From contig NZ_CP102798.1 of NCBI RefSeq assembly GCF_028356935.1, forward strand, positions 2,170,001 through 2,234,000: a DNA stretch of 64,000 bases. Reading direction: 5' to 3'. This DNA is from Lysinibacillus sp. OF-1. GTDB lineage: Bacteria > Bacillota > Bacilli > Bacillales_A > Planococcaceae. Shown in pieces: positions 45,103 to 47,931 of this stretch (its first letter is position 1; every line of letters begins with the position of its first letter). The notes beneath the pieces were generated by a model, which was not told where the DNA came from, did no database searches, and saw only the letters and a list, made by a program, of their open reading frames with translations. The position numbers and the translations under genes are program-made.

Positions 45103-45387
45103 ATGTATACAATTATTTACATGAAAGCGGACTACGAGCCTTGGTGGAAATTTGAAGGCTGGGAAGCTTTTATTCAAACACAAGATACATTTGAAACGAA
45201 GGAGCTTTTTGAAAGTGCATTACAGCAAAAATTAGCACACTTTCGTTCCTCTTATGACAATGAAATGACGAAAGAAGGGCAGTATTGGGCTTTTTGGTCT
45301 GATGACGAAAGCTTCTATTGTGAGGCTTGTGATGACGATGCACAAGTTTATCATGGCATTATTGCTTGTAAAATCGGAGAGTTGTAA
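45103..45387 (+). CDS. DUF1033-family protein
   Basis: A 94-aa protein with the family pattern MYTIIYMKADYEPWWKFEGW and, near the end, YWAFWSDDESFYCEACDDD. Function is unknown. AAGGAAT before ATG 45103 supports this start rather than the in-frame 45031. It is divergent from the chemoreceptor gene and upstream of the cold-shock gene. Confidence 0.82.
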   Translation: MYTIIYMKADYEPWWKFEGWEAFIQTQDTFETKELFESALQQKLAHFRSSYDNEMTKEGQYWAFWSDDESFYCEACDDDAQVYHGIIACKIGEL

Positions 45388-45425
45388 AAAGATTTTGAAA
45401 TAAAGTAAAAAAACAATTTCTTTAT

Positions 45426-45454
45426 TTGACAAAATTATGAATGGCGGTTATACT
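45426..45454 (+). promoter_or_regulatory. Sigma-A promoter of the cold-shock gene
   Basis: TTGACA and TATACT with an exact 17-base spacer. Transcription would begin near 45461, giving a leader of about 148 bases. Confidence 0.85.
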
Positions 45455-45489
45455 TAGGTTAACAATTTAATTGCTTCACCGGAAACATG

Positions 45490-45553
45490 AATTCACATAT
45501 TACAAAAAGTGATCGCGTTAGTTCGGTACTCTTTGTAATATGTGAATTTTTTT
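45490..45553 (+). promoter_or_regulatory. 17-bp perfect hairpin with T-tract in the csp leader (attenuator-like)
   Basis: AATTCACATATTACAAA (45490-45506) and TTTGTAATATGTGAATT (45532-45548) pair perfectly, followed by T to 45553. It begins about 30 bases after the predicted transcript start and ends 55 bases before the csp start codon. It has the form of an intrinsic terminator inside the leader. Confidence 0.8.
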
Positions 45554-45608
45554 CATTCCTTGAAGAAATTACATATTGTTCACTTTTATTTTTTGGAGGT
45601 TTTCTTAA

Positions 45609-45809
45609 ATGAAACAAGGTACAGTAAAATGGTTTAACTCAGAAAAAGGTTTTGGATTCATCGAAGTTGAAGGTGAAAACGACGTATTCGTACACTTCTC
45701 AGCTATCCAAGGCGAAGGTTTCAAAACACTTGACGAAGGTCAAAAAGTGGAATTCGAAGTTGTAGATGGCAACCGCGGACCACAAGCTGCTAACGTAACT
45801 AAACTTTAA
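45609..45809 (+). CDS. Cold-shock protein (CspA/CspB family)
   Basis: A 66-aa single OB-fold RNA chaperone. RNP1 (KGFGFIEVE) and RNP2 (VFVHFSAI) are intact and the length is standard. It melts RNA structure at low temperature and in growth transitions. TTGGAGG precedes ATG 45609. The long leader with a terminator-like hairpin between a consensus promoter and the gene implies post-initiation control. A terminator follows at 45845. Confidence 0.97.
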
Positions 45810-45844
45810 TTCTCAGTAATTAAAAAATACTTTCGTTAAACCCA

Positions 45845-45875
45845 GACATCCTATGCAAATAGGGTGTCTTTTTTT
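45845..45875 (+). terminator. Terminator of the cold-shock gene
   Basis: GACATCCTAT pairs with ATAGGGTGTC around GCAA, followed by T. Confidence 0.88.
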
Positions 45876-45933
45876 GTAGCATTTAAAAGTTTAAGGGATT
45901 ACAAATCATTATTTAGGTTATATATAGAGTAGT

Positions 45934-46475
45934 GGATAGAATGAGCAAAGTGAAGGATAGCCCGCAAAATTGGAGAGCATCTGAGCAAAGCGGTGGATAG
46001 GATAGCAAAAGTAGCGGATAGACTGCGTAAAGCGAAGGATAGCTTTATGAAAGTAGTGGATAGAATGAGCAAAGCGAAGGATAGCTGCAAAAATGGAGAG
46101 CATCCGAGCAAAGCGGTGGATAGAATAGCAAAAGTAGCGGATAGACTGCGTAAAGCGAAGGATAGCTTTATGAAAGTAGTGGATAGAATCTGTAAAATGA
46201 AGGATAGCCCGCAAAATTGGAGTGCAACTGAGCAAAGCGGTGGATAGGATAGCAAAAGTAGCGGATAGACTGCGTAAAGCGAAGGATAGCTTTATGAAAG
46301 TAGTGGATAGAATCTTCAAAGTAAAGGATAGCTCGCAAAATTGGAGGGCAACTGAGCAAAGCGGTGGATAGAATAGCAAAAGTAGCGGATAGACTGCGTA
46401 AAGCGAAGGATAGCTTTATGAAAGTAGCGGATAGACCACACAAAGCGAAGGATAGCCTGCAAAATTGAAGGGCAA
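45934..46475. repeat. Phased GGATAG array: 22 boxes in ~124-bp super-repeats
   Basis: GGATAG occurs at 45934, 45955, 45995, 46016, 46037, 46058, 46079, 46118, 46139, 46160, 46181, 46202, 46242, 46263, 46284, 46305, 46326, 46366, 46387, 46408, 46429 and 46450. Seventeen of the 21 steps are exactly 21 bp; the other four are 39-40 bp. Blocks of five boxes plus one linker make a unit of 123-124 bp, present four times after a partial copy. The linker contains GCAAAATTGGAG and GAGCAAAGCGG. Because 21 is a multiple of 3, frames stay open within a unit on both strands (plus-strand heptads of the type D-R/S-x-x-K-x-x), but 124 is not, so frame changes between units and no ribosome binding site leads in. 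I treat it as non-coding. Confidence 0.9.
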
Positions 46476-46562
46476 CCGTGCTAAGTAGAGAAAAGACTGC
46501 ACTTAATAGTAGCGAATACCATGGAAAAAATTCTAGATTGTTTGTAATAATGAAGGAGGTAG

Positions 46563-47054
46563 ATGGATTTGCAGAATGTAGAAAAATTGCCTGAGGAACA
46601 GGAGCAGCAAGATTTTTATCAGAAGTTGCGTATGAAATTAGTAGCTTTTCTTGGATCGAAGAAGGGGAAAAAGAATAAATTTACGCCTTATTTAATGTTT
46701 GTGCCTGATTTATTTCATTTATTAATTAAAACAGTAACCGATGCGGGTGTAGATAAGAAAAGTCGAGCTTTAATAGGGGCTTCTATTGCGTATTTTGTGC
46801 TGCCGATTGATCTGATGCCAGAGGGATTATTAGGCTTTGGTGGCTACTTAGATGATGTGGTGCTGGCGACTTTTGTGATCAATACGATCATTAATAAATT
46901 GGGGCCGGAAGTAGTGGAAAAGCATTGGACAGGGGACGATAAGCTGTTACATGTGCTACAAAAAGTTGCAGAAGTGAGTGATGAGGTAGTCAGTAAGATC
47001 CCTGTGAAATCACCAATCGCTCAGTTTGTGAAGCAAGAAAGTAAGGATAAATAA
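46563..47054 (+). CDS. YkvA/DUF1232-family membrane protein
   Basis: A 163-aa protein with a polar N-terminus and the DUF1232 core ASIAYFVLPIDLMPEGLLG followed by GGYLDDVVLATFVIN, a short helical hairpin that sits in the membrane. Function is unknown. GGAGG lies three bases before ATG 46563 and eight before TTG 46569; the latter may be the true start. It follows the GGATAG array directly. Confidence 0.85.
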   Translation: MDLQNVEKLPEEQEQQDFYQKLRMKLVAFLGSKKGKKNKFTPYLMFVPDLFHLLIKTVTDAGVDKKSRALIGASIAYFVLPIDLMPEGLLGFGGYLDDVVLATFVINTIINKLGPEVVEKHWTGDDKLLHVLQKVAEVSDEVVSKIPVKSPIAQFVKQESKDK

Positions 47055-47080
47055 TAATATTATGTAAACTCTATTCCCCC

Positions 47081-47116
47081 AAAAAATGAACCTGCTTACC
47101 ACAGGTTCATTTTTTA
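47081..47116. terminator. Bidirectional terminator
   Basis: AAAAAATGAACCTG pairs with CAGGTTCATTTTTT around a 7-base loop, between the convergent YkvA-like and protease genes. Confidence 0.9.
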
Positions 47117-47931
47117 TGTTGCGCTTCTAATAAATGATGGAGCTGTTGAACGGGTACGAACAGGCCGACACGACCAATCGGCTCATGTTTCATCGTCGCA
47201 AAGATAATGCCAATGACCTTCCCCTGTTGGTCGATTACAGGGCTACCACTATTCCCCCGATAAACCGGGGCTTTCAGCATCATAACGGGCTCCTGCCAAT
47301 CCTCTAATTGAATGGATTCTAGTAGTGTCCCTTCATTCGCAATACCTGTAAAGGCGAGAGGGTTACCAATAAAATAAATATGTTCATCCGCAGAAAAAGG
47401 TGGATCTTCTGCTAGTGGGAGATAGGGGAGTTGCTCGGCCTCCACTTGTACTAGAGCTAAATCTACTGCTGGATAACTTTCGATTAACGTTGCCTCCATC
47501 AATCCCTCGTCTGGAAATACAACAGATAATGAAGTGGCATCTTCTACTACGTGGGCATTGGTGACAATAAGCCCGTCAGGAGAAATGGCAAAACCAGTGC
47601 CTTTGCTAGAGCCAGTCGAGATTTCAACGACTGCCTTTTTATAGGTTTGTATATCCTCTTGTGCCGAGAGTCGGGTTGAAACTTTGATGAATTCAATCGC
47701 TGGAATGGAATAAATTTGAAAAACTAAGGCGAATGTATTGAAAAATAGGACCATTGCCATGCCCCACACCATCCAACGCACAAGAGGTTTTTGTTTTTTG
47801 GGCTTTTTTCCATGAAGCCGTTCTTCTCGTTCTCGTGCTAATGCTTTTTGTTGTTCTTCGAGTACGAGCTCAATGAATTCTTCTTCCGTCAATTCTTCTT
47901 GCTTGGATGTTGCATTATGTATGTCACTCAT
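47107..47931 (-). CDS. HtrA-like (S1C) membrane-anchored serine protease, no PDZ
   Basis: A 274-aa protein with a charged cytosolic N-terminus (Glu/Lys-rich helix), one membrane helix (~52-72) and a trypsin-like domain outside. The triad is intact: His in TNAHVV, Asp in AVDLALVQV and Ser in YRGNSGSPV. The PDZ domain of classical HtrA is absent. It probably handles misfolded or signalling proteins at the cell surface. GGGGG precedes ATG 47931. A lipoprotein gene lies upstream on the same strand, separated by a hairpin. Confidence 0.88.
   Translation of the reverse strand: MSDIHNATSKQEELTEEEFIELVLEEQQKALAREREERLHGKKPKKQKPLVRWMVWGMAMVLFFNTFALVFQIYSIPAIEFIKVSTRLSAQEDIQTYKKAVVEISTGSSKGTGFAISPDGLIVTNAHVVEDATSLSVVFPDEGLMEATLIESYPAVDLALVQVEAEQLPYLPLAEDPPFSADEHIYFIGNPLAFTGIANEGTLLESIQLEDWQEPVMMLKAPVYRGNSGSPVIDQQGKVIGIIFATMKHEPIGRVGLFVPVQQLHHLLEAQHKK

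What the first reader, a model, noticed from the sequence alone, without database searches (positions are those of the whole stretch)
45934..46475. GGATAG boxes repeated 22 times at exact two-helical-turn spacing
Seventeen of 21 intervals are exactly 21 bp and the rest are 39-40 bp, so nearly all boxes lie on one face of the helix. Super-repeats of 123-124 bp occur four times. The variable bases between boxes alternate (AAAGTAGY and AAAGCGAA). It is neither CRISPR-like (no unique spacers) nor a convincing gene. Possible roles: a binding array for a nucleoid or partition-like protein, a decoy array, a bent DNA scaffold, or a fast-evolving satellite derived from a heptad-coding gene.
Basis: seen in the sequence. 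Interest (0 to 1): 0.75.

Follow-up and report, generated by a model that had tools for sequence, protein, structure and literature searches.

The report
Replication-oriented, helically phased intergenic repeat arrays
The repeated GGATAG boxes are real and belong to a family of non-coding arrays spread along the chromosomes of most Lysinibacillus species examined, nearly all pointing in the direction of DNA replication and stepping about two helical turns at a time, which suggests an undiscovered DNA-reading system.

Summary
Confirmed: 22 phased GGATAG boxes, 17 of 21 steps exactly 21 bp. It is one of many. The genome holds 134 GGATAG-N15-GGATAG pairs against 2 for the reversed control; 26 of 32 genomes of the genus hold 23 or more. 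The unit is a ~17-bp core (AAAGYGRHGGATAGAAY) plus ~4 nearly free bases. Arrays lie mostly between genes, often just after an intrinsic terminator (39 of 86), and are not coding. In 8 genomes with mapped ori/dif, 82 of 86 arrays have GGATAG on the leading strand, 56 of 58 site groups. Orientation follows replication rather than transcription: 25 of 27 groups where gene direction does not predict it. GGATAG outside arrays is barely skewed. Three sampled genomes of a clade lacking GGATAG arrays carry 21-bp arrays with other words, leading-oriented in 9 of 9. A period scan of 1.75 Mb found 12 intergenic arrays at 21 bp and 3 at 18 other periods together; a looser setting gave 13 and 15. Best reading: binding arrays for an unidentified dsDNA-binding protein acting with replication polarity. 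Reader and function are inferred, not shown.

The parts
45928..46480 (+). Array of 22 phased boxes, core AAAGYGRHGGATAGAAY plus about 4 variable bases; GGATAG on the leading strand
   Evidence: genome position C1:2215928-2216480, dif-like site at C1:2322014
45934..46057 (+). super-repeat copy 1 (124 bp)
46058..46180 (+). super-repeat copy 2 (123 bp)
46181..46304 (+). super-repeat copy 3 (124 bp)
46305..46428 (+). super-repeat copy 4 (124 bp)
46429..46480 (+). partial fifth copy, last two boxes at 46429 and 46450
45844..45875 (+). intrinsic-terminator-like hairpin and T-run of the cold-shock gene, about 50 bp before the array
   Evidence: read by eye; seen by eye in all 9 orthologous loci printed
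45609..45809 (+). upstream gene, cold-shock protein (PF00313)
46563..47054 (+). downstream gene, DUF1232 protein (PF06803)

Best explanation
The array is one member of a chromosome-wide family of non-coding arrays that most likely bind a protein. SHOWN by sequence: a conserved ~17-bp core, mostly every 21 bp (two helical turns), with nearly free spacers; position mostly between genes and often just after an intrinsic terminator; orientation tied to the replication fork whatever the neighbouring genes do; sharing of sites between species with changing unit number; and, in one clade, near absence of this word and presence of 21-bp arrays with other words. INFERRED: an unidentified sequence-specific double-stranded DNA-binding protein binds each core non-palindromically and multimerises along the helix, giving a polar nucleoprotein filament in untranscribed gaps. 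INFERRED and least certain: the filament is a polar element of the replicating chromosome. I favour a barrier or insulator that forks pass in the ori-to-ter direction but that hinders machinery coming the other way, such as head-on transcription.
For: Core/spacer split over 648 units. 82 of 86 arrays leading, with 22/24 convergent, 10/11 divergent and 3/3 lagging-lagging contexts (recheck: 87 clusters, the one dropped is leading); 56 of 58 site groups, 25 of 27 where transcription does not predict it, p=6e-6. dnaA and dif-like sites mapped; GC skew changes sign between 2.318 and 2.340 Mb. Same-strand terminator-like signal within ~140 bp upstream in 39 of 86 arrays, against 10 on the opposite strand. 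At the csp-DUF1232 site 7 of 9 named genomes have an array, one a 2-box remnant, one none; spacers differ, the core stays. Period scan: 12 arrays at 21 bp, 3 in total at 18 other periods. Five of six array-poor genomes form one clade, 100/100 (the sixth, G005, is not in the tree), and the three of these sampled use other words, leading-oriented in 9 of 9 arrays seen. No RNA fold beyond shuffles on either strand of this array.
Against: No reader protein was found or tested; no expression, ChIP or phenotype data. The 78 steps of 19 bp show that the phase is not absolute. At 7 of 8 orthologous sites checked in the other-word clade no array is seen, apart from two CCGCGAAG words 21 bp apart at one of them, so single arrays are dispensable. 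In recent duplicates box positions 1, 2, 3, 5 and 6 changed least, but position 4 changed 36 times and spacer position 11 only 12 times, and that test is biased because units were detected by their core. With a looser setting the period scan gives 13 places at 21 bp and 15 at other periods together. An ORF of 80 aa or more spans 10 of the 86 arrays, so 'intergenic' is not certain for each.
Confidence: 0.5

Rival explanations
1. Selfish or neutral minisatellite. The unit was dispersed long ago by an insertion process acting on single-stranded DNA at the fork (which gives replication polarity and a taste for terminator hairpins) and is kept by slippage, with no host function.
For: Copy number changes fast: in shared site groups 7 against 52 or 26 against 52 boxes, and a strain whose DUF1232 protein is 99% identical has 20 boxes here against 22. 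Polarity and terminator preference are what lagging-strand-targeted insertion would give (recalled for group IIC introns; start of the abstract of PMC6006769, for IS608). A clade nearly lacks the word.
Against: A slipping satellite should homogenise spacers with the core, yet positions 10-12 carry 0.01-0.11 bits and box positions 1-3 carry 1.75-1.90 (the core is also what the detection selects). In the stricter period scan nearly only 21 is found. Sites are shared between species, not recent insertions. Distance from the terminator is not fixed (read).
Confidence: 0.3
2. Rho-loading arrays. Read from the lagging direction the RNA is C-rich, G-poor and rich in YC dinucleotides, so any transcript running head-on to the fork would be terminated by Rho.
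For: Antisense strand of the 86 arrays 30% C and 14% G, 17 YC per 78 nt against 8.1 in the upstream flanks; no structure in this array; Rho in 32 of 32 genomes; explains polarity and the depletion between lagging-lagging gene pairs, 3 of 86 against 43 of 402 array-free gaps, p=0.04.
Against: Rho needs no exact hexamer and no 21-nt step (recalled); a word shared by many loci and its change in one clade are not explained.
Confidence: 0.13
3. Transcribed GGA-repeat RNA (CsrA-type sponge) or another RNA element in 3' untranslated regions.
For: GGAUAG recurs as GGA motifs recur in CsrB-type RNAs (recalled); in G000 the upstream gene is on the same strand in 18 of 23 arrays.
Against: 39 of 86 arrays begin after a terminator-like signal; no fold beyond shuffles for this array; leading orientation also where both neighbours run the other way (3 of 3).
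Confidence: 0.04
4. Degenerate coding repeat (heptads such as VDRIxKV).
For: 21 bp is seven codons; an 84-aa open frame exists here on the + strand and longer ones on the - strand.
Against: 19, 20 and 40 bp steps; 9 of 35 long arrays with any open frame; the most variable bases, 10-12, are three neighbouring positions and so cover all codon positions.
Confidence: 0.02

Closest known systems
KOPS / SRS (FtsK, SpoIIIE and SftA orienting sequences), AIMS
   Same: Leading-strand polarity reversing at dif; G-rich or purine-rich
   Different: KOPS and SRS are 8-base motifs scattered along the leading strand, KOPS denser towards dif (passages of PMC5357621). Here polarity belongs to phased arrays; GGATAG outside arrays is 175:127.
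REP / BIME elements
   Same: Extragenic, dispersed, arrays of a short motif proposed as binding sites
   Different: REPs are palindromic and alternate in orientation within BIMEs (starts of abstracts); this core is not palindromic, runs head to tail and is replication-polar.
Plasmid iterons (recalled)
   Same: Non-palindromic core, 21-22 bp helical step, spacers between cores
   Different: Chromosomal, many loci, no replication gene among the five neighbours scanned; no match in plasmid or phage records at E 1e-5 to 0.01.
Minisatellites / VNTRs
   Same: Tandem array with variable copy number and super-repeats
   Different: Word shared over many loci, nearly free spacers, one dominant period, fixed polarity.

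Membership tests
KOPS / SRS | leading-strand skew reversing at dif | tested here: met
   82 of 86 arrays
KOPS / SRS | scattered single motifs carry the skew | tested here: not met
   GGATAG outside arrays 175:127, rank 978 of 4055 hexamers by skew, in 1.13 Mb of held sequence; single core-like sites are mildly skewed, 16:7 at score 14 or more
REP / BIME | palindromic unit able to form a hairpin | tested here: not met
   consensus AAAGYGRHGGATAGAAY is not palindromic; no fold beyond shuffles for this array
CRISPR | identical repeats of 20 or more bp with unique spacers, cas genes | tested here: not met
   6-17 bp core and ~4 bp spacers; none of the five neighbouring proteins scanned is a Cas protein
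Plasmid iterons | cognate Rep protein and replication origin | tested here: not met
   no replication gene among the five neighbours scanned; no plasmid match at E 1e-5 or 0.01
Rho utilisation (rut) sites | C-rich, G-poor, YC-rich unstructured RNA | tested here: met
   antisense strand only; composition over 86 arrays, structure for this array only
Rho utilisation (rut) sites | Rho-dependent termination in vivo or in vitro | not testable with these tools
   needs experiment
Coding repeat | one conserved frame | tested here: not met
   steps of 19, 20 and 40 bp; 9 of 35 long arrays with an open frame
Minisatellite / VNTR | tandem units with variable copy number | tested here: met
   20 against 22 boxes in a close strain; 7 against 52 in a shared site group
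Phased protein-binding array | a protein that binds the core | not testable with these tools
   no candidate identified

The most novel reading that the evidence does not exclude
Lysinibacillus chromosomes carry an undescribed polarity-marking system: many 21-bp-phased arrays, nearly all oriented with the replication fork, bound by a multimerising protein whose DNA word has drifted together with its arrays. One clade has almost no GGATAG arrays and uses CGCCGATA or CGCGGGTAAA words instead, with step and polarity unchanged.
Probability: 0.4. Interest if true: 0.9.

Novelty: categorically new. Interest (0 to 1): 0.8.

Why it matters
Bacterial chromosomes are known to carry scattered polar motifs, but I know of no dispersed, helically phased arrays whose orientation follows the fork rather than the genes. 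If a reader exists, its arrays mark fork direction physically at many places and evolve like a lock and key. That would give a natural experiment (different words inside one genus) for finding the protein and for asking how cells keep leading-strand polarity or limit head-on transcription.

Tried and rejected
Coding origin: frames broken. RNA structure of this array: z -0.12 and 0.12. Intrinsic curvature: no general excess over shuffles. Rfam on 45300-47200: only the cspA thermoregulator of the neighbouring gene passes its gathering score. Plasmid or phage origin: no match at E 1e-5 or 0.01; at E up to 10 four short hits in unrelated genera. Of 83 viral contigs with the triple pattern, the core matrix flags L181 (scores 12.8-22.9) and L179 (10.1-10.5; a G-rich repeat, probably unrelated); L165, read by eye, starts with the array sequence of G000:C1:1471799. 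I printed only six of the 83 and did not check whether L165 or L181 is phage or host flank. DnaA boxes (recalled TGTGGATAA resembles GTGGATAG): the last G is conserved here, so not pursued. B. subtilis Chi (AGCGG, recalled) is five times denser in arrays than elsewhere on the leading strand, but many units, such as AAAGCGACGGATAG in G001, lack it. Rho as the factor lost in the array-poor clade: Rho is in all 32 genomes. Literature searches on such arrays gave nothing (listings only, open-access library only); one search gave the review whose passages I saw; I saw listing and starts of abstracts.

Full report
WHAT IS THERE. The window lies at C1:2170001-2234000 of a single-contig 4.71-Mb genome. 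By its DUF1232 protein it is closest to Lysinibacillus fusiformis Juneja 3 (99%) among the nine named loci returned (very near records may be left out by the tool). Between a cold-shock gene with its terminator and a DUF1232 gene lies the array of 22 boxes, 17 of 21 steps exactly 21 bp, made of four 123-124 bp super-repeats and a part.

DISPERSAL. A search with one super-repeat gave 22 matches, 17 of them outside this array. The pattern GGATAG-N15-GGATAG occurs 134 times in the genome against 2 for the reversed control. In the genus 30 of 32 genomes have at least one match; the useful split is 26 genomes with 23-443 pairs and 6 with 0-2. In the order search (261 genomes, all of one family) the triple pattern with one mismatch allowed is found in 60: 29 of the 32 of this genus and 31 others, 25 of which have 1-6 matches and six 7-39, the highest being G100 (the pair search over the family is).

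THE UNIT. From 648 units of exactly 21 bp in 86 arrays the consensus is AAAGYGRHGGATAGAAY followed by about 4 nearly unconstrained bases. The matrix was built from G000 units and arrays were defined as 3 or more matches, so other words are missed by it. In recent duplicates (146 window pairs, 417 substitutions) box positions 1, 2, 3, 5 and 6 changed 5, 8, 1, 9 and 10 times, position 4 changed 36 times, position 16 only 3 times, and spacer positions 10-13 changed 39, 12, 21 and 23 times. That leans towards purifying selection on the box but is not clean.

POLARITY. dnaA is at 337. A dif-like site, found with a pattern from recall, occurs once, at 2322014, and in all 32 genomes, twice in G025. 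GC skew is positive in every sampled stretch up to 2.318 Mb and negative in every one from 2.340 Mb. In G000 22 of 23 arrays lie on the leading strand, or 23 of 25 at a looser threshold. Over 8 genomes 82 of 86 do. The regions were mostly chosen from pattern hits, and some hit lists were cut off by the tool. A recheck found 87 clusters in 109 loci; the one left out lacked a neighbouring gene and is leading; 28 loci have no cluster of 3, 15 of them G000 stretches taken for other reasons. By gene context, leading arrays are 47/48 between two leading genes, 22/24 convergent, 10/11 divergent and 3/3 between two lagging genes. Since relatives share sites, I grouped arrays by flanking proteins (one flank at 60% identity suffices, so some groups may lump different sites): 58 groups, 56 leading by majority; 25 of 27 where gene direction does not predict it. 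One shared group is leading in G008 and G009 but lagging in G001. With a narrower pattern, counted by hand over six genomes, 36 of 38 loci are leading; the exceptions are in G010 and G025. Genes of 120 aa or more in the same stretches are 77% leading (760 of 991), so gene bias alone does not account for this. The hexamer outside arrays is only weakly skewed, 175:127. The polarity is therefore mainly a property of arrays, unlike KOPS or SRS.

PLACE. Median distances to the neighbouring genes are 60 and 84 bp; an ORF of 80 aa or more spans 10 of 86 arrays. A terminator-like hairpin with T-run, by my own simple scan, lies upstream on the same strand in 39 of 86, median 27 bp away, against 10 on the other strand and 9 beyond the downstream end. 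Convergent gaps are preferred over divergent ones compared with 402 array-free gaps (odds 3.6, p=0.001), and lagging-lagging gaps are depleted (3 of 86 against 43 of 402, p=0.04).

EVOLUTION. The csp-DUF1232 site was found in nine named genomes. Seven have arrays of 5 to 20 boxes, L. sphaericus 2362 has 2 boxes in decayed repeats, L. xylanilyticus none. Eighteen groups span more than one genome, with box numbers from 3 to 52 over all of them. In a tree of the rho gene (30 genomes; G005 and G011 had no locus, and G005 is array-poor too) the five array-poor genomes form one group with 100/100 support, beside array-bearing G008, G028 and G014.

OTHER WORDS. A scan of seven sets (1,747 kb in all; the G026 and G029 stretches were taken nearer dif) for self-similarity outside ORFs at periods 14-32 gave 12 places at period 21 and 3 at all other periods together; at a looser setting 13 against 15. 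In the three genomes sampled from the array-poor clade the words are AATCGCCGATARAA (G020, G026), CGCGGAATAA (one G020 site) and TCGCGGGTAAA (G029). All 9 arrays seen have that strand leading by local GC skew; single CGCCGATA words in G020, arrays included, are 23 leading to 6 lagging. G000 also has one array with a different word (L074), and G008 one (L303). Two genomes of other genera showed none at period 21 in 140 kb each. The CGCGGAATAA array of G020 lies next to the same transporter-like gene (named by eye) as a GGATAG array of G000, with the same second gene beyond it; in G000 a 219-aa ORF lies between the array and that second gene. At seven other sites with both flanks found, no array is seen; one has two CCGCGAAG words 21 bp apart, two carry a GACTCCTGCGGG-type repeat and a third what looks like a fragment of it (read by eye). 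So the change of word is mostly turnover of sites, not conversion in place.

READING. A step of two turns shared by drifting words, conserved cores beside nearly free spacers, and orientation set by the fork point to a dsDNA-binding reader. The main rival is a polar satellite without function; a Rho-based barrier is next, because the antisense strand is strongly rut-like.

Noticed in passing
window 45485-45560: Long hairpin followed by a T-run (read by eye) in the 5' leader of the cold-shock gene, partly inside a region matching the cspA thermoregulator family (RF01766, 84.2 bits).
   Followed up: no
L074 8828-8935 (G000:C1, about 4008829): A 21-bp array with another word, ATACTYGCGGARTGAAGAGRA, in the same genome, leading-oriented.
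   Followed up: partly
L288, L291, L326: A GGCGACTCCTGCGGGAA-type repeat (a fragment in L326) sits at sites where relatives carry GGATAG arrays (by eye); the same gaps attract different repeat families.
   Followed up: partly
G025:C1: Nine extra DnaA-domain hits beside dnaA, six with the same score, as expected of a multicopy insertion-sequence helper ATPase (interpretation recalled).
   Followed up: no
G001:C1:4046376 versus G008 and G009 relatives: The same site group carries an array in opposite orientation relative to replication in one species.
   Followed up: no
G030, G031: The reversed control pattern also gives hits (46 and 14 on the reverse strand), so these genomes may hold an unrelated 21-bp repeat.
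   Followed up: no
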